Shown here: positions 18,689 to 61,694 of the stretch, in pieces
Position numbering within the stretch: the first letter of the stretch is position 1
How the letters are laid out: the number at the start of each line of letters is the position of its first letter
Assembly (NCBI RefSeq): GCF_032854445.1
Contig: NC_088301.1
Coordinates: 52,687,187 to 52,751,186, forward strand
Source: Liolophura sinensis
Taxonomy: Eukaryota; Mollusca; Polyplacophora; Chitonida; Chitonidae
DNA length: 64,000 nucleotides
Reading direction: 5' to 3'
Position numbers and translations under genes: made by a program
Notes under the pieces: model-generated
What the model saw: only the letters and a program-made list of their open reading frames with translations
Databases searched by the model: none
What the model was told of the DNA's origin: nothing

Positions 18689-20431
18689 TCACTTTTTCCA
18701 AGATTTTGTAGCATTTTGCTTGGTAATTTGCTGTTTGGTTTGGTATGCAGTTACAATTTGATTCATAACTGCTAAAATTAATATTGCAACAACTCCCATA
18801 CAAGCATACCAAGAGGTTCCTCTGACATTACGCATAAACCAGTTGGAATACAGTCCAAGGACGAGAGTTGTACAGGCAAGGGTGTAAAGGCATAATCCTG
18901 AGGTAGCATGGTAAAGCTTTAACTGTGCCAGCTTAATGCTCTGAATCCATGCAGGATTCATGACAACAGTACCAGCAAGACATTGCACTGCAACATATAT
19001 GATTGTAATGAGGCCAAAGATTCCATGCCAGGTTACAAAGTGTTGCTTATGATTGAGGTTCTTGCTGACAAAGATCACAGCAAAACCTGCCCCTCCAAAG
19101 GCAGCTGCTAGCGTCTGGAGAATCCAGTGAACTTTGGCCTTATATGGACGGCTGGCCAGTGGTATAAATGAGCTGTGAGCCGAGAAGACAGTTATTGCTT
19201 CAAACATAAGCAGGGCAAACTGAAACAACATAACACAGCCATTAAAACATATGCGCTCTTCTAAAACATATATATTAATACAAAAATATTGGGTCATATA
19301 AATCACAGGCCCGTTATACCTATTAAGTACTGGTATGCAAAGTTACCTCATTATCCAACCGTAATCTAAGGCTTCATCTATATTGAATTGCCTCATTTAA
19401 AAAAAAAGTTCATTTTTTTTAAAATATCAAGATGATCCACATTGTTAATACTTTCATCTACAATGACTCAAAATTCTCAAGCTGCCTTCCTCTGCGGCAG
19501 TATGTGGGAAGATTTGTCAGCAACCTGCGGATGGTTGTGGGTTTCCCGTGGGCTCAGCCCAGTTTTCTCCCACCATACTGCTGACTGCCGTTGTATCAGT
19601 GAAATATTTTGGAGTACGACATAAAACACCAACAAATTAAATAAATAAATGATTCATAACTCATATACATATGTACATTTAATTAATGCTTAAGCAACTA
19701 CATGCAGTGTCAATATGTATTAATGCAACAACTGGATGACGAGATGTCATAAATGTATCACTTTCACTTACAGAAACTGTCATCAGAACTGGATGCCATG
19801 GAAACAGAGCTGAAACTGATATATATATATATGTAATGATTAATAAATCAGATAGGAAAGAAATTTTAAAAAAATTGTAAATATATAGAAGTAAATGCAT
19901 GAGCATAAGCCATAAATGGAATATGGCCCTACATGTAGTTAAGTTTTTCAGTTTTGACGTTACGCTTACAACTACATACTTTGAAATCAGATTTTTTCAC
20001 GGGCTGTCAATGAAATTCAAAAAAGAATCCGTGTTACATTACCCTGCCCAATGTCATGCAGATTCGACAAAAGGTAAAACACTTCCTATACCCCATAAGC
20101 GTGATCCGGCTTAGATTTTCGTCCAAGACCGATTTTACAGAAAATATTTGCTTGACACTTTTACCCCTGCTTTCTGTGCTTACAGTCAAGATGATCACAC
20201 ATTAAAGGAAACAGTCGTGCCAACGAAAATAGTGACTATTTGATGGTGCACTTTAGAAAACTCCATTTTAAGTTTTGATGAAATGAGAATTGCGCTTGTT
20301 TGTTCTTTCAAAAAATAAGTTCTACCTGCCCATGGCTTGGCCGTGTAGACTATATAAGCTGTGAACAACGCTGCCGTGAAGTGGACCACCATCGTGTATA
20401 CATAAGATATTAAAATAAAAGAGATAGTCAT
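18689..20431 (-). CDS. CYB561D2: Cytochrome b561 domain-containing protein 2 (101F6-type transmembrane ferric reductase)
   Basis: Ascorbate-dependent transmembrane electron carrier/ferric reductase (established for the b561 family). Exons in gene order: 20431-20326 (ATG), 19815-19772, 19219-18689 (TGA). Phases 1 and 0 agree and give 226 aa, against 222 in human. Multiple hydrophobic segments span the protein. Four heme-coordinating His sit at residues 43 (FPWHPVLM), 81 (VHWILQ), 115 (TWHGIFG) and 153 (LYHATSG). The spacing 38/34/38 nearly matches human 101F6 as I recall it. 'KLYHATSGL' and 'VMNQ' near the C-terminus are hallmarks of this subfamily rather than of CYB561 itself. The middle exon is only 44 nt and encodes the WHPVLM motif. 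The start was chosen as the first ATG upstream of the first membrane segment; Met14 is an alternative. The promoter region is shared with NPRL2. Confidence 0.93.
19475..19650 (+). mobile_element. V-SINE copy inside CYB561D2 intron 2
   Basis: 'gctgccttcctctgcggcag', 'gcaacctgcggatggttgtg', 'ttttctcccaccatactgct', 'gtgaaatattttggagtacg' and the tail 'attaaataaataaatg' follow the SINE consensus. It lies between the second and third CYB561D2 exons, antisense to the gene. Confidence 0.85.
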
Positions 20432-31979: not shown

Positions 31980-34900
31980 TCATGCCAAAGTTGTATCAAA
32001 TATCTGGTAACAGGTTCCTGCTTGACTGCTGTAAGATTTGATGCAACATTCTAACCATGGTTTGGACTGATCTGTCCCCAACAATGCCATCAGGTCACAT
32101 CTGACTCTTTTGAAGGTTCTGGAATCTTTTAAGACATCCTCTGGCTTGGTTCCACGCAAAAATTCTGTCTAAATGGGAGGGAAAAAAAACAAGACCTTCT
32201 TGACAATTTAAAAGGATGAAAAACAGGCTCAACTTATTTACAGACATTTTATTTGAGGTACCTGTATATTGACCTTTAAGAGATAAAAACATCAATGAGT
32301 CAACACGTGTTTACTGAGATCTGTTATAACATCAATTCTTTAAAAACTATTACGTAGAAAACAATGGCCCTGGACCACAGATTTTTATTATTAAAATTCA
32401 CTTATTTTTTCATTTTCCGGCTCGACATCTACATGTAGCTTGTTCTCCTGCAGATTTTAAACTTTTCACACGCTAGTATGATTTTTGGTAATAAATATAT
32501 GTAAATCTAAATATGAGTTTAAGGTAGAGGACTGACAAAATCAAAAACTTACTGCACTGTCCCTCCATAGACGAGCTACAATAGCATCTTCACCATCATT
32601 CAGACTGAATTTCAGAATAAATGTGTACTCCATGGAAGGGGAAGCTGCTGTAAACATATGGTAGGGAGTATAAATTGCAATGTGCTGGAAAAGCCCTCGC
32701 TTAAATTTGTCATATTATTTGGGAATGATCTGAAAAATACAGGACCAAATTAAATTTTATTGGGTCACTTAACAAGAATAGGGGAGTTTCGAGTTCGAAC
32801 TCTACTGTCGTTGAAGGTAAAAACAGTCGTTTTGTATCATGTGATGTGGAAAAAATGTTAGGCAAAATTTGTACACATTAAATTATCGATCACTTGCCTC
32901 ACTGTGTTCCACAGACACAAATCACACCTCTTTCCTTTACAAACTGATACAGTAGGACTTTTATTAACTTCAGTAAGAAAACAGTTCAAAAATTGTACTT
33001 TACAATGAAATATAGCTTAATAACTATCTGCAAGAAAAAAGTCAGAAAATTGCATGTATGCACATCTATATGTATGCATGTAAATGTACTTGTAGATAAA
33101 CAACCTGATAGCTCTCAAAACACAAGTGTGTAAAATTAGAAAGGATTTTTTTGCAGAGTAAAAATTTGACAAAGCAATGAAGGTTAAAAGCTATTTATGC
33201 CACCCTACACACAGATATGTTAGCATTCAGGTGAGAAACTTACATTCTGATACTGGATTTGAAGTTTCCTTAATACACTTTATGCAATGGGGGTACTTCA
33301 GCTGTCCATCAGGTGATATATCAGGGCGCACTCTGAAATATAAATCAACCACAATGCAAGCAATGATATCTTCTAAGAAATTTATAGTATTTTATGAGCA
33401 TTAACAGCCATACTCTAGATTACTACAGTTGAACAAGAGCATTCAGCCAGTCTTATGGTTGAAGGATTCCAGTAAACCAATGGCCTTTGGTACATACAGA
33501 AAAACTTTCCGATATATGATATGCAATCTGAAAGGTGGAAGGCAAATGATCTTCAATAACTACATACAGGGGGCCTTTTCACACAACTGCATAAGTCATA
33601 TTTATCGTACCTTTTTTCGAAGCAGACGTTGTCTAGGTTATAGTGCCATAGGCAAGGTCATGTACTAGAAAAGCTATGAAAAAATGATTTTGTGAAAGAG
33701 GGCCCAGTTCTGTAAATAGCCTCACAAGCAAGGTGGAACACAGCGATCTTTAGAGCTTCCTGTTCAAAGCTGTGACTGAACCGTTACCTCATAGTCTCTT
33801 AATGATTTATAGACAAGATCTTAACTCTCACACACTACCCAGTCATAGGTGTAAGATGTGGGATAACCACACAGAACTACAAAAACTTGCAACTGCTTTG
33901 TCATTAATTGAAATGCAAGATTAGACAACATCTATTATTCACACTGTTGTAACCATCCGATGTATATCCTTACACAAAGTGGCACTGCGGGCAGTACAAC
34001 TTGACCAGATCCTCGGGATACTCTGTCTTCGGATGATAATCCACCACTTTGGCCAGAACACGGAACTTATAAGGAACGTTGTGCCGCTTCACCTCTGACA
34101 GACAACAACTTTTTATGTGTTGATGTGCTGTGAGAACTAGGAATGAAAATCAAAACAAATATATACCTGTCAGGGAACAGCGGATGGGCTGTGTAGGTCA
34201 TACATTTTTACTGGTAATCATAAAAAGAATTAAAACGGGACAAAAAAAAAAACAAAAAAAAAACACGACAGGAATTAAGAGGAATATACTGGATTTGAAC
34301 CCAAGACTGTCATTTATCGTATACAAGTACAATGGGCATACCCTATTTATCCTAAAATTTGGGACACCTGGTCTGCTCATTTTAGCCAATATATATGGAA
34401 TTCTAGCAGGAATATTGAGTTTCTTTTCTCTCACATCCTTAGACCATCTAATAAACAACAATTAAATTTCCAAAAGGCTGGTAAAGAAATGTAATATTCT
34501 ACTTTCAACATTACTAATACCTGTCCCAAATTTTGGAAGAATTAGGGTAGTCCTAATGACCAGCATAGAGCTACAAATGTACATGTAACATAACTCTGAT
34601 CTTCTGCTTATAGTCCATAACATAGGGCACAAAGAATACATTGTGGCAAGAGTGATTCTTCTGTTACACTGCAGTGATTAGTTTCATGTAGTCTTACACA
34701 AAGACCCAGTGTTAAGTATGAGAGAAAATTGTAACCATCCCGAAAAGTTTTCTCTTCATAACGTAAAAGCCACACATAATTATCACATAATTATTATTTG
34801 ATTTAAAAAAAAAATGTTAATCTCTGATCAATTTAGACAGTTTTCACAGCTCACCTATTTCTCTGTTAATTTCACCGGCCTGCCTAAACCTACTCTACAT

Positions 34901-37900
34901 TCGGAATGTCTTGGAATACTAATTGCCGGAATACGCTTATGCCAGATTGGAACTTAATTAGTGCAGTGGTCCTGGAGAAAAAAGCTTTTCTGGGGTATTT
35001 ACATAAATCCCAAATGGACGCCATATTGCGTGACAATGTTAATGCAACATAACTGACTCACAGTGTGAGTTGGAGAAAAGACTGAATAAGATAAAAAAAT
35101 TTAGCAAGGTAAAAGCTTTTCATACAGCAGTTTCAGCAAATTACTGCAATTTGAAATAACATAGGCCTGGGTGTGTTTTCGACCGGCAGTGGGAAGTCCA
35201 TTAAAAGCATATGAATACACTTTCATTAAACAATCAATCCACTTAGTCAATGGTGCCCACTCAATTGAAGTGAAGCACTCAAGGGACACTTGATACATGT
35301 AACTAGTCCCACCTGATTATGTGTTATTTTAAAATTTTGATTTTCAATGTTATACTGAATCCATCCCTGTGTTTCAAAAATCCATTGCACAGATTTCAAA
35401 TCATTTTTCTCCCACTCATGGCAATAACTTGACCTTTTTTGCTACTTTCATTTCTAAAACCATGTTCCAGGTGAATCCATAATACTGTCTTCTTAATTTA
35501 CTACCATCACAAATCAACCTTGCTGTCTTTTGTCTTAACTTTGAGACCAGTAAAGGTACTGAATCTGTCGTATCAAAAATGTAACCAAGTTCTGGCACTG
35601 AAATGAATTATATGAACTATAATATTTTCTTTGCCGTCTGTAGGCATAACTTCATAATTTAAACAAGCAGAACATAAACAAAAGTTTGGCAACAATCAAT
35701 GTGGGCCTTGTTGAAACCAGCTCCATTACAGGGATACAGAATCATCACTGATTAGTTGGTACAAGAGATAGGCAAGTCCAGTCTAAGCTTAACTTTAGTG
35801 GTGCCAGATTTACTGAAGCGTGACCAAAGCTCTATAGCTTAATCCAGAAAACCCTATCTTCACTCTGTCAGCCGATCAGCATGTATTCTATATCCTTCAT
35901 AGAGTTTGGGCATGTGCAGCCATTTGCTGGAGAGACAAGGATGGGCTTGAACAATCCAGATTACTGTGCACATACAAAATACACTCAGACAATTTGTGAT
36001 AACTACCTGTCGCAGTGTCCATCATGCACCTGTTAGCATCCAGGATTTGATCTGATTGCAAAGGAGAGACAGCTGGGTCACATGACAGCTGCAGCTCAGG
36101 TGACCCAGGTGTGATAAAATGAACCTGTCTATAACTTTCACAGTGATCAGAAAGCCTGACAACTTTTTTATTTGGTGACAACCTTTCACTCTGTGTATTT
36201 AGATGAAAAACTCCCCTTTTCTCTGGCTGCCTCGAGTTTTCTGCAGATACATTATGATTGCACAACTCTGTGGTAATTTCATCTTGTCTGTTTATGTTAG
36301 CCACATTCCCTTCTAAACAAGATAGGCCAGCCTTGTCTTTTGCTATGGAAGAATCTTGTGGCATTTCTGTCTTTTGGGGCACCCTTGTTGATGTACTAGG
36401 TGATTCAGCACTTCCATCTTGTCCACCTTTGCTACTCCTAACCTTCTCCTTGATTGCATCAAGTCTGTTTGTCAGGTTCTCTGTTTCTTGCACACCTGGT
36501 TTGGCCTTAAACACACCACGGCCATAAGAAGTCCCCCTATGTAACACCAGTTCAACAGTTTGTAAAGCATTGTACTCATCTCTTGTCTCTGCATTTTTAT
36601 ACACAGCAGCATGCAAATTTCGAAGATTAATGAGATCTCCTGGCTGTAAAAAAACATAAAAAATGTATGTTAACACTTTCATCATATAATGCAGCAAGTC
36701 TGTTGGTTCAATTTGATTACACAGTTTGCGATCAAATCAGATTTCTACGAAATAGTCAGGTTTTATACAGCTCTCTAATTACTATGTACAGTACCAAACA
36801 TTTACTTCAATGTATAGTTGAACATTAAAAATTGAACTTGATTTACCAACTCTTTCAAGGCAACATTTGCCAGATGTCAAACGAGGCAATTTTCGCTTTA
36901 AAGGACAAGGCAGCACCTGGCTAAAACATAATTAAGTAGAAAGCAGTCTACTCAAGCTATCTAACAAGTATCATACTTTATCAATTTAATCAGATTTAAT
37001 GGAGTAACAAAGTGGCAATACTGCACAGATGACTGGTGTGAATCAAGGCAGCCATCTTGGGAATTTTATATCGCCATGTAATATTACGATGCCATGACAA
37101 TATCACAAACTATGTCAGACAGCAGTAAGTACAGTATCATACCATCTCGGTTCAAACCACATTTATCTCCCCAATAGACTTGAAGCCTATTTAATCGTGC
37201 TGTTCAAATTAAACAAACACTTGTCATCATTTTAGCGTTTAGTCAGCAGCTTCTAAATAAAAAATATCAGAGACAATAATAAATTCATCACGGATGCCGA
37301 AGGTTTTTGGGAATGAGAAGACGGCATCTCACCAGACAACGCTTAAGATTAATTAAACCTTAGGCTATGATTTATGATTTTTCTGTGAATTTATTAGAAC
37401 TGAAGAATTTAAATTTTACTCCTTTGTTTTCCTCGCATACAAGGATGTTTTTTTTCTTGTTGTTTTCTTCTGTAAAATACAGTAAAATTATTAAACACTG
37501 TGTTCGCAGCTGAGTTGCTTTCTCTGACCTCTGCAAGAACTAGATCAGCACTGATCTCATTGTAGAAGACAACACTACAAAATTGAAGCACAAACTCCAG
37601 GAACAGTCAATTGCCTACATCATGTAGCCTGAGCAGTGCTTAGAATTATTTTTATTTGTTTTAGAATTGAGCATGAATCTAGTTGTACAACAATCTTATT
37701 GTAATTTTGTAAACATTTAATAGGGCTCAAAATGACCAACAAACCCCTCTGGAGGCTACAACCTGAGTCAAGACTACCATCACTGTGTGTCTGCAGGCTA
37801 TTTAAAACAGGGTCTCTGGAGTACCTTGTAAATAATATAAGCCTAGTAGGCCTACTGTATCAACAGTTCAAGCAGTGGTCCAACTTCCGAGAAAGCTATT

Positions 37901-40900
37901 TATCACTTGGGCTTTCATCGCTACAACTTATTTCTGCTATGCTCAAAACCATTTTACAGATTATACCTTCAACGTTAGACAGCTAGTGTAAACATGATGT
38001 CACCTTTCTCTTGATAATGGAGAAGTGCTGAAGCTGCGTCAAGATAAAGTTTCACTAAATATTTACTGGGTTGAAAAAAAAACTAAAAAAATATTTAACA
38101 CCTGTTTAAAATAGTTTGAATTGTAGTCTTTCAATGGACATAAACATTAGTCAGGTGCTGACTTGAATATAAATAAATTAATTTCCTGCCCAAAACATGG
38201 TTCAAATGGCTTTGTTTCAAATGACTATATATTCAGCAGATGATATCTTATTCACTGAAAAATGAAGCAACACACCTTAATAGCTCTGCCATTTGCATAA
38301 TGATCATCAAAAAGACATACATCATAGATGAAGCCTTGGGCTATCTTATCAAGTTCTGCATCAGTGTCGAGGTCACAGCTTTCACCACTTACGTCAATTG
38401 ATCTAACAGGACTAAGAGAAATGAAAAAAAAATCATGTACATCAATGACTCTGACAAGTGGATGTACCATCTTTAACAATTTTAGCTGATATACAGATTT
38501 CAAGCACGATTTGAGCTAAACTGTTAAGTTGAGTTTTGAATTTGTTAGTCTTAAAAATTAAAATGTACTGTCCTTGAAATGTGAAAGGCCAAACTTAACC
38601 GACGTATCAAATAACAAATACATCCAAACATTATTCCAAGAGTAGGGATACTAACTTTTTAATTGCAATAACCTAGAATTAGCATTTCCTTACTACAACA
38701 GTTTTGTTCCATCCCAGACTCTCAGCAATATACAGACACCTTCCTCAACAACACCAGTGGACACCACCTGAAACGATGTTACAGATGTATATTACTCTAT
38801 TTTCTCACATTTTCCCATGTGGAAGAGCAACTTATCTTGTGATTTTTGCACATTTTTAAATTGAAGACAGGTCAATATTGATTGGGATGGCCAGTCTCAG
38901 GGCTTTACAACAGGCATAACTTTATCAGACTACACTGAATATTACCCTCAAAATATACTTGAATAAACATCTTGAAAATATGCGAAATGGTTGAAGAATT
39001 ACAGTACTATACTTAGAAAAGTTCTGTTGTAAAACAATGTATTTTTACTTGAAATTTATCACTATGAAATTAGGCAAAATGTAGTGATTTTCGCATACTT
39101 TTGCATACATGTTACAGTAAGCATTTCATGCAACCATGTTTTACCTGAACGACAATATCAGAATAGCTGCCAGGTATAAAATCACCCAAGGTAAATTGCT
39201 TAACATTCTTGCTGAACTCATCCAAACCAGCAGCCCACTTTCTCAACTCCTTAACCTGTCAAAATACAGACAATACAGACAACATCACCAAGGGTTCAAC
39301 TGTGCTCTGCCACAGTAATTGGTAAAATTTTCATGAACTTCCACGGCAATTCTCTGATCTGTGGAACTCTTCTCACTGGCATCACTGACCACTTTCCAGT
39401 ATTCCACATCAGTAAACTTGAACACGAGAAACAGCCAACACAAAAAAACATACAGTGTCGTAATTTAACTACCAGCAAAAGGGAGACTTTTATTCAATCA
39501 GTTCAAAAAACAAACTTGGATTCTGTTTACAATGAAAGTCAAGACACAAATGTTGCAATGGATGCATTCTTAGCTAAATTCAAACCTGTTAATTAAAACT
39601 ACTTTCCAGCCCGAACATTAGAAATAAACAAGGGTTACCCATACGTTACACAGGCTGCAACTTAGGCACAATGACAGTGTTACTCGCAAATACAAGGTCT
39701 ACAGAAATAAATTTCATAGTATGCTATGTTTTGCCAGAAGAAAATATTTCAAAAAGAAATTCAATAAATATAATCAAGACATAACATGTGTCTAGAAAAC
39801 AATAAATGAATGAATAAACCATCTCCTTCACAACTTCACCTTTTAATATCTATAATACAGATGTAAACGACATAACTGTAATCTCCAATAAATTTAATGA
39901 ATATTTCAGTAATATTTCATCAAAACTGGACTCTGAAATTCCACAAGAACAAGCAAATTTTTCAGATTATCTGGGGAAACCTTTACTTAGCAATTTTCCT
40001 TTCCAGTTACTGCGACCTCTGACATGAAATCTGTCACTGTAGGCCTTAAATCCTCTGCCTTGCTCAGGCTAGACCGAATTCCTGTCAAAATTCTAAAACT
40101 AGTTTTGGATAATATAAATGCTCCCTTATCACATATAATAAACTGATGTTTCTCGTCAGAGTGTGTTTCAGAGTGCATAAAGGTTGGAAAAATTTCGCCA
40201 ATATACAAGACAGGAAACTCTGACAAATTCAAAAATTATAGGCTGATATAGGTGCTTACACGCTTTTGTAAAATATTTTAAAAAATCATGGTGGGCGCCA
40301 TGTATGATTTTCTGGAATCAAATAATGCTGTTTAGGAAAATATTTACATCCATCAATAGAATACCAGAGGTCGACCTTTAGATATTTATACGCTGATATA
40401 TCAAAGCTTATCTATTATTCCCTATATACATCATGCCCATAGAAAAAGAATAAATTACCAACAAACCTACGGCCAGTTCGTTCAACCTCTCTATTTAAAC
40501 CCGAGGCCAAAAAATACCTACTTGAAATTTAGTTTCTACTTGGTTGGTATGTTGCATATACGCTATTATATTATCATGACGCATTGTTTTATTTTAAGAA
40601 AAATACTACTATATATAGTCTACTATAATATATCACCTCTACTTTGTTTCAGCTATTTAACTGTTTCATTGTTTCAGGATAGAACAAGCTCACCAATTCC
40701 CACCATTAGTTTACTTAATCTTGATTGTAACATATTCCATCATGGTGAATAAAATCAAATCAAATCAAACTAAACTAAAAATACTCTCAGTGTTGACAAA
40801 GAAAAAATTTATTTATTTATTTGATTGGTGTTTTGTACTCAAGAATATTTCACTTATACGACGGCAGCCAACATTATGGTGGGTGGAAACCGGGCAGAGC

Positions 40901-43900
40901 CCGGGGAAAACCCACAACCATCCGCAGGTTGCAGACAGACCTGCCCACTTATGACCAGAGAGGAAGCCAGCATGAGCTGGACTTGAACTCACAGCAATTG
41001 CATTGGTGAGAAACTCCTGGGTCATTACGCTGCACTAGCGCGCTAACCAACTGAGGCACTGAGGCCCCACAAAGAAAAAAAAAGACAATACTGTGAGAAA
41101 GCATAATCTGTCATATTGGTAGATAATGTTTTTTAAATTTTTGGACTGTTGGATAGCTGGTATTTAGAACACTACATACTGTATTACATTACAGTAATAG
41201 TGAGGAGGGCAATAACTAGGAGTAATATTCACATCTAACATTCTCACAACAATGTGGTAATGTTTAACAAATCTCACTAAAATTGTTCTAAATCTCTTTA
41301 ATTTGAATAACCAGACTCCTGCTTTACTTCCAGACAGTATTATGATTTATTAACCCGAAGACCATGACTATGATCTAAAATCCACTTGCATATGTCCTTG
41401 TGGTGGAGATTATGTTTACCCTGTATCCAGAAAATCATTTTAAAACATGTTTGATGTGTTGACAAGCCCTCTTTACCTCATACATTATGATTTGAGTGGC
41501 AACAGAACAAATAATGGTTGTGAACTTTTTGTCCGGCACACCCTGACAAAACTCTTTTAAAATAAACCTGTAAACTCTTAGCTGTGTATGGCCATAACAG
41601 ACATGTAGTACCTGTATGTAGTTGCAACAAAATGGTTACATGCATTTGTAATCTGGCGATAACTATTCTTTCTTCGATATCTTTCGTAATTAGTATTTCC
41701 TTATGACACTCTGACAGACTTGAAAAATGAACTAAATCAAATCTATATTTCAAAAAAAGAAAGTTCACATGTGTTACTTGATGTTCTGATCATACCCGTA
41801 TAGAACAAACTGAGGACAAAGCTGGTTTACGGACGTAATGAGCGCACAATGACTCAGAATTAGTCATTGAAGTGCCCTCTGTCAACCCTCCACAGTCAAC
41901 AGTAGTCACTTTTTTATTTCATATGGACTAGCCTTCTGTATTGAAGTTTGTTCAGTACCATGTATGCCCCAATATGGAGATGCTTCTTTCATCATACCAT
42001 ACCTTTTCCTTATCACCATCAGTAAGGGTAAACTGGGAGCTAGAGGTCTTTGGCTCTAAACTCGCTCCTTCCTCACCCTCAAACACAAGCCAAGAGAACC
42101 CAGGCGAGTTATTGCCTTGTGGCTCTCCATTGTAATTAACAACCTGAAATGCAATACCCGGTAATCAAAGTACATTATTACCAATAACTTCATCTCCAGA
42201 CGCATCACTTACTGATTATGTAGACAATGGATTGAAGTTTTATGTCTTTAATAGAAACTTAAAGGTCACAACATGCAGTACTTTTTGAGATATCACCCCT
42301 AACATTTACTTTAACATTCATTCTAGTACACAATACACTAAGTCATGAATTTTGTGGTTTATGCTATAAACACTGAATCAACGATGGAATATCCCCCTCA
42401 CGTTGCTGCACTCTACATATGTAGAAAACCTACCCTGTAAAAGCAAGCTAAATACTGGATTTTTCAGTTTTTGCATCTTTACCCTCCACTAACATTGAAA
42501 AAAAAATCTTTCTGACTGTAAAACAAATGTTTAAATTTATATCTCTTCAGCTAAATATACAGAAATGAAAACATTAAAAGCAGTTGCTTTCATTTTAATA
42601 CGCATATTTTCTGTATTTTGCAAAAGCGACCTCACTGTAGCAGCAAGCCACAGTTATATACAATACAGCACTTGAAAAATGTTCTATCTACTTGACCACA
42701 ACGCGTTTCAATAAAGACGAGTTAAAAATGTCACAAATTTGATACAGAGAACAGAACACATTTCACTTCATGAATCCTTTAAAGAAATTAAGAGATATAC
42801 ACTTCATCAGCAAGATACGACAGGAAAAACTGCCACTGGATTTTCAGACATACATATACACAGAATAAATGAAAGACTACCCACTCACCTTTAATCTATG
42901 AAATCGTACAATAGAGCCTAATTTCACCGGTGGCACTTCTGCAGGTGGTCTAATGAAGAAGACGCACTTTAACTTTGTCAGACAGTCACATGTAGGATCC
43001 ACAAGACTCATAACCTGGCAAAGATCTTCATGGAGACAAAGTAATATGCCGTAATCAAAATGCAACACACACACTGTGAAAATTACACCAACCTTCACAA
43101 AGACACGAAAATGAGCTTAACCAATAGTCCCCATAAATTTTCCAGTACAAAATCAAAACCAAAAAAATTAACATAACATGAAGCGTTTACATACACAAAT
43201 AATGCAAGAATGATAATGAATGCAAGAAACATTTTTTTTTCATCATGATGCATCAGGTGGTTGCAAACATCAACCTCTGTTCACATTAGTCACTCACCTG
43301 TTCCCCTTGTGCGATATGGAGGTTTGAAAAACTTCACCACAGCGAAGAGATTTACACTAGAGGTTGCCTTGACTTTGTCGATGGTAGTGTATTCGTACTG
43401 TGGTGGGTTTCGCTGTAATACAAGACGAATGACAATCTGGAAAACACATAACCACTTCATTCACTGTCAAAACCTAAAGCAAATCAAACACAGGAAAAAG
43501 CTGTGAAGCCTTCAGTACTCTGAAATACATGCATGTCACATTTACTGCACTATTTAGCAGACATTTACTGATGCTGTCTGAAAAAATGCTGTTCTGAGGG
43601 AACTGGACTATTGTGGCAACTCAACGGACCACAATCCCTAAACAAATCAGACAATCCACCCCAACCAGGCAGGGATCGCTGACACTTGGACTAACCCCCT
43701 CACACTGGTTTTCATTTCAGTGGGGTATCAACTTGGCCAAAATTCCTAAGTACAAATACAGCTGAACTTGAACTCTTACAGTCACAAGGGGAATGCCGTA
43801 ATTATTTTGAGTGAAAATGCTGTTTCCTCACTTCCACAGGAGCCAGAACTGTCTTTATGCTTTGAAATATCTGTATAAATTACCTTTTTGGTGGGGACGT

Positions 43901-46900
43901 CAGAAGTTGCATTTCGAGGTGGGCGTGCGACTATGTCAGAAACTACCTTGACTTTTCCTCGGATGTCTACAATCTTAAAGATACCAGGGATGTTAAAAGA
44001 ATTTTAGCAATGTGTTAAAATGCATTAAAGGAGAAGACGACAAAAGTATAATCATTTTATCTCTCATCCTACAGCTGTTTTTTACTCATACATTACAGTA
44101 GTGCAATAAACTGTCAACTGACCTTCACACTAACTAACCTCGGCCCAGTATATTTTCAACCATGTTCAGGAATAAAACACTGTTCAAATTAAATAGCTGT
44201 ACTTATCCCTATAATTCATACATCCACAGGTAAGTGGTTCTAGATAGTTGATCCAGCAGGACCTACCCAGATTTTTACATCTCCCTTATCATCATTCACA
44301 CACACTTGACACGTATGACCTGCCGTTGATCGATTAGACTGCTCAACAGTAAACCCTGATATGATCACAAAATTCTGAAATCACAAAAATTTGGAATGTT
44401 CTCTGATATACAGCGATATGAATGTTTTCTTTCTGAGAATTCTTACAGAATGGTTTTCCCTACACTTCATATACAACTTCAACACTGAGCATAATTAGGG
44501 CAAGAGTCATGAAAAAGACATATAAATGAAAAAGAAACACAATATAACAGAAAAGAAGAACTATGATATAAGGAACCATCCCCAATTATCGTTACTTTCT
44601 TTATACGTTTTAAACGAATGAAAATGAATGTAAAATACGAGTTAAAAGCGATTTGGTTATCTGTCATTCGTTTGAAACGACTGAAAAACGTAGTAAAAAG
44701 ACCTGTGTTGAGAAAAACGACTTTGTGTGCTGTTAAAAATATCCAATACTGAATCATATACTACAGGTAGTTGTAATAATGAAGTGAAATCTTTGCCACA
44801 GAGCCGAGAGTTGAGCTATGAAAGCCCAATGGGCCAGCTAAATTTTTTTAACAGCAGAGAAGGGAAGTTATGGTTAAATTATATACAAACTGTGATGCTA
44901 AGGCTTGGTGGGTATAAAACAAAGTGGGAGTACGTTCGTCTTTAGTTTGATCAAACTTCGCAATGCCCGTAAAGTGAAAGGAAAGTAGATACCAGCACAT
45001 GCTGGCATCTGATGAATGTCACTCTGATACACGATATCCAATTGGCTGTGCCTCCATTGTGGTCCAATGAGTGAGCATGTCCCAAACTGTGAAGAGTGTG
45101 TAACAACACAATGGCTGTTAGACAGCTACGGCAATGTTTGAGGTTTCTGACCTGCTACAGAGGACGACTAAAACTGAAAACAATGCAAAACTTACCATGT
45201 TACTTAATAAAGAATGAGTGACTAGTGCCCATAATGGTGAATTCATGTTTTGCGTTGAACTGCTCAAAAGGTGACAGGCCAGGTGTTTAAAAGTAGGGGG
45301 CCAACTCATCAATGATTCGGAAAGAAGTGATCCCTGTTTGAGTACTGCTCACGGTAGGTGCAAAAGTAATCTAAGTAGTAGTGATAATCCATCCCCCATT
45401 TTTTAATCTCTGATTCACATCACAAGGATTAGCGACACCGCAGGATAAGGACATAAGGATTAAAGCCATCCATGATGATACCTGTTTGACGTGCTTGAAT
45501 AATTTCTACCACATTACATCTTGGAAAATTAATTCCCGAGATCATATTTTTGGAGACAATCCGCAAAAATAAATTCCAGCGAATTATAAGTATTTTACAG
45601 TACCTTTCTGTTTGACTTCAGCTTACCACAATCTGCCACATTACTCGAGCCGAGATCCAAGTGGAAATTAATCGCTGGCCATGTATGTAAAGTCAGGGTA
45701 TGATACTGCCATTTAATATTTGCAATTTCTAGGAGAATATCACAGCATTTAATCTATCCATATTTCTTCAATCTCTGTTACACTTTCTGCTTTATATCGG
45801 TCCCGTGTTGTATCTTGCACATAACAAATGACCTGATTGGCTCTCATAAGCATACTGACCAATGGGCTTCGTCGTGACAAACTTCTGTACTGATGTGTAA
45901 ATAAAGTGAGCGTTTCAGCCTCTGCAACTTACTTGTTCGGTAGTTCATGTTGTTTAGGACATCACTATTAGTACAGCTGTTAGAAAGGGTGTCGTGAAGT
46001 GGGATGGTCTGGACTGCATGTATTTATTTGTTAATTTGGGCCGGTTGAATGTTAACATTGTTTTTCTGCAAAATCTTTATTTATGTCGTCTATGAAATAA
46101 TGACTGATTTCCAGGTGTACAAATATTCATGTGGTCAGCTCTTAATTACTTACCGGTCATGACACTGACATCAGTGGTATAAATAAATACTCTGTCAGCC
46201 AAGAAGAATCCCCCCCAGCCTCCCGCAAAAAAATCGCTGGGGGGAGGGTTAAAGTTTTGTTTTACCTGGACTATTTGGAATATGTATTCATTCAAACACT
46301 GATTACATATACCGTTAGACTCCAAAGCCATACACTTGTCAGTTACCCATGTATCAAAGCTTTTGAAATTCGTGTCTGAAGATGAGAACTTGCATGTACA
46401 CAAGTATTATTTGGCTTCTGTTTCGTGAGTGAGTGAGTGAGTGCTTGGGGTTTAACGTCGTACTCAACAATTTTTCAGTCATATGACGACGAAGGAATCA
46501 TTAGGGTGCATGTACGTGTAATGTGCCTCCTTGTTGCAGAACAGATTTCCATTGCTCTTTTATTTAGTGCTGCTTCACTGAGACGACTTACCAAAGGCAA
46601 GTAAGCCGCACCGCCCGAGCCATTATACTGATACGGGCCAACCAGTCGTTGCACTATCCCCTTCATGCTGAACGCCAAGCGAGGAAGTTACAACTTCCTC
46701 TTTTAAAGTCTTAGGTGTGACTCGATCAAGGATTGATCCTGGATCTACCGGTCCCGAAGCGGACGCTCTACCAACTGTGCTATCCGGGCCGGTCGCTTCT
46801 GTTTCGTATAACAGTGTTTAACTAGTTTGAGATTTATATTATATATTAATATTCTAATATCATAAATAGCCGATTCTAACTTCTTTATCTTGCATCTTAT

Positions 46901-49704
46901 TATTATTTGATTAGTGTTTTACGCCGTACTCAAGAATATTTCACTTATACGACGGCGACCAGCATTATGGTGGGTGGAAACAGGGCACAGCCCGGGGGAA
47001 ACCCACGACCATCCGCAGGTTGCTGACAGAACTTCCCACTTAAGGCCGGGGAGGAAGCCAGCATGAGCTGGACTTGAACTCACAGTGACCGCATTGGTGA
47101 GAGACTCCTGGGTCATTACGCTGCGCTAGCGCGCTAACCGACTGAGCTCTTGCATCTTATGCTATTTTGGTTATTTATTTATTTATAAGTGAACGTCAGT
47201 GTGTCAGTCAGGACCGATTTGCACAAATATGCCTTTGTGTTAGTCTTCAGAATAAGCTTAGCAATTAAAGTACGTTATCAATTATAACACATACAGAAGC
47301 CTGGGATAAAACTGTTGTGTATTTTGTCCTGTTTTCTCTAAAAATTCACGGTCTGAGAAACTGTTGTATATAGCAGTTATGTTCCTAATACTCTTTGCTC
47401 TGTTTCCACCTTAAAACTTCACTTATGTAGTTAATTTTCTATACATATATCAGATATATATCCACGCATTCATCTGGCTAATCTATATCTTTAAAAATCA
47501 GTGTTTCAATATACTATAACATTTCTTTTTGCATTTACTGAAAAATTGGGGTAAAAATAGTCAAAATAATCACAAAAATGACATCGAGAATTGCGCTTTT
47601 TTATATTAATACAGAAATTAACAAAGTCATATTTTGTGGTAGTATATACAGTTTAATAGTCTTTACACTGTATATACTGTATAACAATAAAGTCTTTCGT
47701 GTCTCAGACAAAACAGTAGGCCTTACCTGAGCAGCATTTGGCTGAACATGCACAGCCTATTGTTTTCTAATTACCCACTGCATGTGTCTGGTGGACAACA
47801 TAAATCCTGTACTTGAAATGAACTCAGAAATCAAGGCACCTACTGCGCGGTAATCCCGGATTACTCACGCATAATCCCATGTGTGACTGAGTGTCTAACA
47901 TATAACTCAAATTTCCAGATTACTAATGCTAACCTAAAAGTCAGCAAGTGCGGTAATAATACTGGCTCTTCATAATTTGACAAGTACATGTACACACCTA
48001 AGTATTGCGATTCATTTTTACTCGATAACCTTGCGACATCCGTAGCCTACACCGGTCGCATGGCGTGCTGTTGTTGTAATCAAGCAGTTTGAAAAACAAA
48101 ACAATGACTGCTGGCAATATTTGCCAATTTAGGCAGTAGGATACCAGTGTACTTATGTCTCTGTTACACATCACAATACACTCTTGGTGTATTAATACGC
48201 TAACGATATGGTGTTCTGTTCGTATTTTGAGGCAGGTCTAACTTGTGCAATGATGCGTGCAACTCGAGCGAAAAGCGCAAAATAAACAAATTGGTTAAAT
48301 CACATTCATTTTATCTAATTTGTGTTTAACAAGTAGATACAAAACGATAACTGGGGGAGGTTCCTAATCTTAATTAACTTGCTTTTTAACCTGAACGCTT
48401 TAGGCTCATTCTGGATGCAAACTGCAAAATATCTTTCAAGTGTACTGTTTAGTTTCACACATAATGAATGAGTGAATGTAAAATATTTTAGTCTTCGACT
48501 AAGATTTAGTGCATGATGTTACCCCCTTGAGTATCTGTTCCACTTCCTTGGCCAAGTCACCAAAACAGAACACACTGATGGAACTGGTATTGGAAGCTGG
48601 ACCAGTGGTAGACACATTACCTGCCAAACAGTTGAACCAGACAATTTAAGTACAAAGCATGTTTCCCTTTCAATAATATACACATTTGCATCATCATTTG
48701 ATTACTTTTCATTAATACACAATAGCTACATGAACATTGTCCTTATCCTTTATATAAGGTTTTGTGGAGCAGGCCGTTGCCAGTTCATTTAATTAAGTTT
48801 CTGTTTAACCTGCTGCATAATCGTAGTAAAGCATAACCATATCTTCCTTGATGATCATAATAACAAAGCAAACATATTAACTAAATTATGTGAGTTAATC
48901 AGAACAGATGTCTCACTTTCGTCAATAACAAGTTTCAACAGGTAAGGCTTTTTCTTCTTGTACTGTAAATCCCATTTAGAGGACACAAAACCCTGAAACC
49001 AAGATACCATAAAACAGTACATGTACTTGTAATCATATTGTTAAAACTACGATTATATAGTAAGAGCCACATGATTTCGAGCATGCCCATAGGGGTGACA
49101 GATGGTGTGAACTTCAAACTCGATAAGCATGCTTTACATTTGGACCCTTTTAATCAATTACTTGCATCAAATTAAGAACTCCAGAACAGCGAATGGCCTT
49201 CTTTGAATCTGTAATCTCCAGTCACAAAATCCTGACATATTTGAAGTTCTGCTTAAGGTGAATATCACTTATCTCTGATGAATACTAATGAGCAATGAAA
49301 TAACAGCAAATTTTATATCATACACACAAAATATGTACAAGTAATAATTTTTTGTTTCCTGAAACTTCAATATCTTACATAAATTTTTAGAATTTCAAGA
49401 AGTGGTACACCTGAATGAGAGAGCCAGTCTGCTAAAAACTTTCATCCATAATGCTGTGACTTTTAGTTAGTATTACATAAAGAAATATTTGCAACAGTTA
49501 TGCAAAATATATTCACATGCTTTAAGTAACTGTTGTATACTTGATAACTACGTTTACAAAAGATTGAGTCTTTCTCACCTGTATATATTTCTTGGAGTAA
49601 ATGCCATCTGTTTTAAGGTCAGCAATAGGCTGTCTGGTATAGTCATCTGGGAGCTTAATAGTAACAGCCTCTTTTTTAGAACAGGTCAGTTTTGTCACCG
49701 TCAT
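31980..49704 (-). CDS. POT1: Protection of telomeres protein 1 (shelterin), with N-terminal extension
   Basis: Binds single-stranded telomeric DNA in shelterin (established). Seventeen exons in gene order: 49704-49579, 48992-48917, 48620-48523, 44374-44267, 43973-43884, 43436-43298, 43025-42889, 42143-42003, 39255-39145, 38767-38694, 38411-38276, 36643-36007, 35597-35502, 34094-33974, 33332-33244, 32647-32553, 32168-31980 (TGA). Phases agree; about 820 aa against 634 in human. Residues 167-258 carry the canonical first OB fold (AVVKFFKPPYRTRGTDLCQV, GSIVRFHRLK). OB2 spans about 306-450 (LLRVWDGTK, HRGTSYGRGVF). A Ser/Pro-rich linker of roughly 170 residues follows. The C-terminal OB has CPQC (691-694), CIKC (713-716) and ends PWLECCIKSY...CYQIFDTTLA. 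Residues 1-166 are extra and OB-like. The donor of exon 13 (35502 or 35505) is uncertain. Confidence 0.9.
39310..40800 (+). mobile_element. Degenerate non-LTR retrotransposon (LINE) relic in a POT1 intron
   Basis: Plus-strand frames, broken by stops and frameshifts, resemble a LINE ORF2. The end of the endonuclease domain reads SLICGTLLTGITDHFPVFHIS (39350-39415). The N-terminal part of reverse transcriptase follows (39855-40000: NKFNEYFSNISSKLDSEIPQ, then FSDYLGKPLLSNF). Further pieces are RIPVKILKLVLDNI (about 40070-40125) and FKNYRLI-like sequence (about 40228). It ends in an A-rich 'aatcaaatcaaatcaaac' tail. Most of the RT catalytic core is missing, so it is dead. It is antisense to POT1, and a SINE in the opposite orientation follows immediately. 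A jockey/CR1/L2-type element is the likely group; the clade is not resolved. Confidence 0.75.
40808..41068 (-). mobile_element. V-SINE, full length with target-site duplication
   Basis: Complete on the minus strand: head 'ggggcctcagtgcctcagtt' and 'ggttagcgcgctagtgcagc' (A box), 'gtgagttcaagtccagctca' (B box), V-like core 'ggtttccacccaccataatg' and a tail ending in repeated AAAT. The 12-bp direct repeat ACAAAGAAAAAA at 40796-40807 and 41069-41080 is the apparent target-site duplication. It sits at the 3' end of the LINE relic, in the opposite orientation. Confidence 0.93.
42250..42350 (-). repeat. Dispersed repeat, inverted copy of the 2530-2650 sequence
   Basis: The minus strand reads 'gacttagtgtattgtgtact', 'gttaggggtgatatctcaaa' and 'aagtactgcatg', colinear with plus-strand 2536-2612. 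Located in the POT1 intron between exons 7 and 8. Confidence 0.7.
46427..46794 (-). mobile_element. Second tRNA-derived SINE family, full length with 13-bp target-site duplication
   Basis: The minus-strand head 'cggatagcacagttggtaga' (A box) and 'gatccaggatcaatccttga' (B-box region) show a tRNA origin. The body (about 368 bp) ends 'ttgttgagtacgacgttaaa' and a GAGT-type simple repeat. It is flanked by the perfect direct repeat GCTTCTGTTTCGT at 46414-46426 and 46795-46807. The intact duplication indicates a fairly recent insertion. In POT1 intron 3. Confidence 0.92.
46901..47147 (-). mobile_element. V-SINE, full length with 13-bp target-site duplication
   Basis: The minus-strand head contains 'cagtcggttagcgcgctagc' and 'gtgagttcaagtccagctca'. 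The core has 'gtcgtgggtttcccccgggc' and 'cacccaccataatgctggtc'. The end is 'gaaatattcttgagtacggc' plus an AAATAATAATAA tail. The direct repeat TCTTGCATCTTAT flanks it at 46888-46900 and 47148-47160. It is only 106 bp from the other SINE, in the same orientation, in POT1 intron 3. Confidence 0.94.

Positions 49705-51393: not shown

Positions 51394-61694
<10,301 letters not shown>

What the first reader, a model, noticed from the sequence alone, without database searches (positions are those of the whole stretch)
43884..49704. POT1 carries an extra N-terminal OB-fold-like domain (about residues 1-166)
Seen: five exons (49704-49579, 48992-48917, 48620-48523, 44374-44267, 43973-43884) precede the exon that holds the canonical start of the first POT1 OB fold (TTIDKVKATSSVNLFAVVKF). 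They join it in phase with no stop. Their product reads like an OB fold laid out as in POT1 OB1: a basic strand pair (KKYIQGFVSSKWDLQYKKKK, PYLLKLVIDE), a strand-helix segment (SISVFCFGDLAKEVEQILKG) and a closing strand (NFVIISGFTVEQS). A further strand-rich piece (DIRGKVKVVSDI, IVIRLVLQ) follows. Known: human POT1 begins directly with OB1 at its N-terminus. Inference: this lineage has a POT1 with an additional DNA- or protein-binding OB domain, possibly an OB1 duplication. An unrelated domain fused at the 5' end is the alternative.
Basis: partly seen in the sequence, partly recalled or inferred. Interest (0 to 1): 0.75.

Follow-up and report, generated by a model that had tools for sequence, protein, structure and literature searches.

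The report
POT1 with known N-terminal OB domain
This animal's telomere-capping gene POT1 has an extra front domain that human POT1 lacks, but a paper already reports that most animals' POT1 proteins carry this domain, so the finding is real and ordinary.

Summary
The five named exons exist at the stated coordinates, with GT donors and (exons 2-5) AG acceptors, and join POT1 OB1 in phase. I extended the model to 16 exons and 802 residues (49704..31980, minus strand), ending in a conserved POT1 C-terminus. All 16 whole-assembly matches fall in this one locus. The joined extension has coding-like codon use in its own frame.

The extension's core (residues 36-138) shows a weak OB-fold signal: its 3 Pfam hits are all OB or SSB families, below cut-off. 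Shuffles gave 0 hits (9 of residues 1-182) or one stray non-OB hit in 3 of 9 (core).

It is not a novelty of this lineage. PMC9119445 states that most metazoan POT1s (citing Myler et al. 2021) and most basidiomycete Pot1s carry an extra N-terminal OB fold, OB-N. It reports that Ustilago OB-N binds Rad51, shows no appreciable DNA binding, and does not group with OB1. So this is most likely another instance of a described domain; the OB1-duplication idea is unsupported. Already known; low interest.

The parts
49579..49704 (-). POT1 exon 1, residues 1-42, with start ATG at 49704
   Evidence: GT donor, first in-frame ATG after a stop, coding-like codon use
48917..48992 (-). POT1 exon 2, residues 43-67: first strands of OB-N (GFVSSKWDLQY..., PYLLKLVIDE)
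   Evidence: AG/GT sites, in phase; inside the SSB profile match, residues 41-109
48523..48620 (-). POT1 exon 3, residues 68-100: strand-helix (SISVFCFGDLAKEVEQILKG)
   Evidence: AG/GT sites; inside SSB, SSB_1, tRNA_anti-codon and PriB matches, all below cut-off
44267..44374 (-). POT1 exon 4, residues 101-136: later strands of OB-N (NFVIISGFTVEQS..., CQVCVND)
   Evidence: AG/GT sites; codon score flat; profile matches reach residue 117
43884..43973 (-). POT1 exon 5, residues 137-166: linker between OB-N and OB1
   Evidence: AG/GT sites, best codon score in true frame
43298..43436 (-). POT1 exon 6, residues 167-212: end of linker (IVIRLVLQ) and start of OB1
   Evidence: homology to solved POT1 chains from residue 179
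42889..43025 (-). POT1 exon 7, OB1
42003..42143 (-). POT1 exon 8, OB1
39145..39255 (-). POT1 exon 9, OB1/OB2 junction
38694..38767 (-). POT1 exon 10, OB2
38276..38411 (-). POT1 exon 11, OB2
36007..36643 (-). POT1 exon 12, end of OB2, long linker, start of the OB3 region
33974..34136 (-). POT1 exon 13, OB3 first half with CPQC at residue 673
33244..33332 (-). POT1 exon 14, short OB3 insert with CIKC at residue 695
   Evidence: GT-AG and frame; not covered by the PDB alignment
32553..32647 (-). POT1 exon 15, OB3 second half
   Evidence: a NAGNAG acceptor leaves one codon open
31980..32168 (-). POT1 exon 16, C-terminus (CYQIFDTTLA) and stop codon

Best explanation
It is an ordinary four-OB-fold animal POT1 (OB-N, OB1, OB2, OB3). 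Exons 1-5 encode the OB-N domain already described for most animals. OB1 and OB2 bind the TTAGGG-strand overhang, OB3 docks TPP1, and OB-N most likely acts as a protein-docking module, Rad51 being the one partner I saw reported, in a fungus. Shown here: gene structure, POT1 identity, continuous frame, weak OB-type signal. From the literature: OB-N in most animals and in basidiomycetes; no appreciable DNA binding and Rad51 binding (shared with OB1-OB2) by Ustilago OB-N. Inferred: that this extension folds as OB-N and works the same way.
For: 16-exon in-frame POT1; Pfam POT1 182-313 E 4.9e-34, POT1PC 330-476 E 7.1e-24; solved POT1 chains match in three stretches from residue 179 to 802. Extension: the 103-residue core (36-138) hits SSB_1 (0.011), SSB (0.011) and tRNA_anti-codon (0.079), 3 of 3 hits OB/SSB type; 9 of 9 shuffles of residues 1-182 hit nothing; of 9 shuffles of the core, 3 had one hit each, 0 OB type, and a same-length piece of the POT1 linker had one non-OB hit. 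tRNA_anti-codon reaches E 0.007 with the full protein; the only NCBIfam hit is PriB, 0.1, residues 78-117. All 16 assembly matches in one locus; TTAGGG arrays near the starts of contigs C10 and C13. Literature: PMC9119445, passages and section 6; OB3-TPP1: abstract of PMC5394241 as shown in a search listing.
Against: All OB-type matches are below curated cut-offs. With residues 1-182 as query two of four Pfam hits were not OB families (RNAseD_HRDC_C 0.15, Csm4_C 0.18), and core shuffles reach E 0.045 by chance, so no single hit counts for much; only their agreement does. The extension has no PDB sequence match of value (one row, a sulfatase, E 0.63) and no PHROGs hit. No structure prediction, no RNA evidence, and no other animal's OB-N sequence for direct alignment.
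Confidence: 0.88

Rival explanations
1. OB-N is a recent, lineage-specific duplication of POT1 OB1.
For: Both appear to be OB-type domains in one protein.
Against: No OB-N/OB1 similarity above shuffles (Z -0.4; 326 of 500 shuffles reach the score), though OB1/OB2 also gives none. The published comparison does not group basidiomycete OB1 with OB-N, and OB-N is reported in most metazoans.
Confidence: 0.03
2. An unrelated, non-OB domain fused at the 5' end of POT1.
For: No Pfam match above cut-off and no useful PDB sequence match.
Against: The core's three profile hits are all OB/SSB type, while 18 shuffles gave no OB-type hit; position and rough size agree with the published OB-N.
Confidence: 0.06
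3. Exons 1-5 belong to a separate or alternative transcript and the main POT1 starts near exon 6, for example at an ATG in intron 5 that reads MKWLCVFQ into exon 6.
For: An in-frame ATG, right after a stop, lies 8 codons before exon 6.
Against: Exon 5 ends at a donor with no stop, and exons 1-5 are in phase with OB1; an N-terminal OB is reported as usual in animal POT1.
Confidence: 0.03

Closest known systems
Metazoan POT1 with OB-N (Myler et al. 2021, Genes Dev; not held, known here from its citation in PMC9119445 and from recall of its abstract)
   Same: N-terminal OB-type domain ahead of OB1-OB2-OB3.
   Different: No difference found; direct alignment with published OB-N sequences could not be made.
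Ustilago maydis Pot1 OB-N (PMC9119445)
   Same: Extra N-terminal OB fold before OB1.
   Different: Fungal; the paper gives about 350 residues before OB1, here about 178.
Human POT1 (species of the PDB chains recalled; the table names only the molecule)
   Same: OB1, OB2 and the outer parts of OB3 align.
   Different: Its chain starts at OB1 and has 147 residues between the two OB3 stretches where this protein has 32, so no room for a human-size HJRL domain.
RPA70 (RPA1)
   Same: Four OB folds in series is the published parallel.
   Different: No pairwise similarity of OB-N to the OB-A of this genome's probable RPA1 above shuffles (Z 0.14 to 1.04 over three settings).

Membership tests
POT1 | OB1 of the POT1 family (PF02765) | tested here: met
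   182-313, E 4.9e-34, 117.6 bits over cut-off 29
POT1 | OB2 (PF16686 POT1PC) | tested here: met
   330-476, E 7.1e-24, 84.9 bits over cut-off 27.2
POT1 | C-terminal OB3 | tested here: met
   613-680 and 713-802 match C-terminal POT1 structures; Pfam OB_POT1A is just under its cut-off, 24.3 against 27
POT1 | binding to TPP1 and to the telomeric G strand | not testable with these tools
   needs protein
Metazoan POT1 OB-N | in-frame domain before OB1 (about 120 residues in basidiomycetes) | tested here: met
   exons 1-5 in phase, 166 residues
Metazoan POT1 OB-N | five-stranded barrel with intervening helix | tested here: inconclusive
   OB/SSB profile hits below cut-off; 0 OB-type hits in 18 shuffles; no structure made
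Metazoan POT1 OB-N | sequence kinship with other animals' OB-N | not testable with these tools
   apart from PDB, which gave no match, I found no collection of animal sequences on offer beyond this one genome
POT1 OB1 duplicate | closer to OB1 than to other OB folds | tested here: inconclusive
   no signal, but the test has no power

The most novel reading that the evidence does not exclude
The gene makes two forms: a four-OB POT1 from the 49704 start and a three-OB, human-like POT1 from an intron-5 start (MKWLCVFQ-IVIRLVLQ...). Docking through OB-N, for example to Rad51, would then be switched by promoter or start-site choice.
Probability: 0.04. Interest if true: 0.45.

Novelty: already known. 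Interest (0 to 1): 0.15.

Why it matters
It adds one more animal to the published picture that a four-OB POT1 is the usual animal state and that human POT1 is a reduced form. It gives an exon map in an animal with TTAGGG arrays, usable for testing what OB-N does, but it opens no new question.

Tried and rejected
Pfam family search for POT1 in the own genome gave nothing although the gene is there: that search is insensitive exon by exon, so absence there means nothing. Search of the OB-N core in the own genome found three of its own exons and two weak places (C11, E 0.149; C7, E 6.14). For the C11 place I only looked at the list of open frames of 70 residues or more; none reads like an OB fold to me, it was not scanned against profiles, and I take it as chance. 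Pairwise OB-N against OB1, OB2, OB3 and the probable RPA1 OB-A: no signal, and no power; OB2 against RPA1 OB-A scored higher (Z 1.15 to 2.04) than OB-N did. PHROGs: no hit. Two paper searches with mollusc or invertebrate wording found no paper; four others gave listings.

Full report
What is in the sequence. Each has a GT donor, exons 2-5 have AG acceptors, and they concatenate to 498 nt without a stop. Reading on, I built a 16-exon gene from 49704 to 31980, 802 residues, with GT-AG at all 15 introns and a terminal stop. Edges of exons 6-16 were chosen by eye and then borne out by homology. Intron 3, between exons 3 and 4, is 4148 bases long.

It is POT1. Pfam gives POT1 OB1 at 182-313 (E 4.9e-34) and POT1PC at 330-476 (E 7.1e-24), with a sub-threshold OB_POT1A match at 706-788. 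Solved POT1 chains (12 distinct sequences at E up to 1; the best two are full-length human protein, species recalled) match from residue 179 to residue 802 in three stretches. Searched against the whole 609-Mb assembly, 16 of 19 scored candidates pass E 0.1 and all 16 fall in this locus, one per exon, so the gene looks single-copy; stretches withheld from that tool cannot be excluded. A TTAGGG 30-mer has 170 forward and 120 reverse matches against 0 for the reversed control; the listed rows (capped) are near the start of contigs C10 and C13, about 16 kb into C10, and one inside C6.

Is the extension coding? In the joined frame its codon score, trained on exons 6-16 against POT1's introns and with stops left out, is 12.4, against -9.0 and -4.9 in the other frames; 5000 intron pieces gave mean -17.6 and maximum 12.3. 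Four of five extension exons score best in their own frame; in exon 4 another frame is marginally ahead, -0.1 against -0.4. The null is not matched in GC. The ATG at 49704 is the first in-frame ATG after an upstream stop. Upstream, on the other strand, lies a gene whose exons at 54.6-56.2 kb match methionine aminopeptidase 2; its probable first ATG is at 51394 (sequence, read by eye), so the two genes seem to stand head to head.

Is it an OB fold? The 103-residue core (residues 36-138) hits three Pfam models, SSB_1 (E 0.011), SSB (0.011) and tRNA_anti-codon (0.079), all OB or SSB families (tRNA_anti-codon by its own description; that SSB is an OB fold is recalled). Controls: nine of nine shuffles of residues 1-182 hit nothing; of nine shuffles of the core, three had one hit each (E 0.045, 0.15, 0.19), none OB type, and a same-length linker piece of POT1 had one non-OB hit at 0.081. 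The real residues 1-182 gave four hits, two SSB (0.032, 0.042) and two non-OB (0.15, 0.18), and the full protein gave tRNA_anti-codon at 0.007. The only NCBIfam hit is PriB (E 0.1) over 78-117. Nothing reaches a curated cut-off, and PDB sequences give no useful match. Single hits at this level arise by chance; it is their agreement on one fold class over one stretch that speaks for an OB fold. The OB reading is therefore probable, not proven.

Where does it come from? Pairwise tests of OB-N against OB1, OB2, OB3 and against the OB-A of this genome's probable RPA1 (found with PF16900; OB-A supported by Pfam) show nothing above shuffles, but OB1/OB2 also shows nothing, so these tests cannot decide.

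Literature. [quoted passage not shown] 2021 (Genes Dev), and is present in most basidiomycetes. Its text says basidiomycete OB-N is nearer to metazoan OB-N than to basidiomycete OB1, and that the two OB-N groups are nearer to each other than to RPA70 OB-N; the authors do not rule out convergence. In Ustilago OB-N shows no appreciable DNA-binding activity; OB-N and OB1-OB2 each bind Rad51; deleting OB-N shortens telomeres. Myler et al. itself is not held; I recall from its abstract that metazoan POT1s other than primate and rodent ones are predicted to have this fourth OB fold.

Conclusion. This is a further instance of a described kind. The most likely role, by analogy with the fungus, is protein docking at telomeres; in this animal that is inference only. 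The late control did not change my odds.

Noticed in passing
window 33244-34136 (minus strand): OB3 has a compact pair, CPQC at residue 673 and CIKC at residue 695, with only 32 residues between the two alignable OB3 stretches where the best PDB chain has 147; this looks like OB3 without the HJRL insert of human POT1 (insert's identity and vertebrate distribution recalled).
   Followed up: partly
window 51394-56210 (plus strand): METAP2-like gene divergent from POT1, about 1.7 kb between the two probable start codons.
   Followed up: partly
window 15473, 16137, 40835, 46926, 50542, 55426, 58090: Seven copies of a 26-base repeat end (up to 3 mismatches; 0 expected), probably part of a SINE-like element; two lie inside POT1, in introns 8 and 3.
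   Followed up: partly
window 43437-43460 (minus strand): In-frame ATG right after a stop in intron 5 reads 8 codons (MKWLCVFQ) into exon 6: a possible start for a three-OB isoform.
   Followed up: no
window 18689-19342 (minus strand): Open frame with a cytochrome b561 domain (Pfam PF03188, E 6.5e-25).
   Followed up: no
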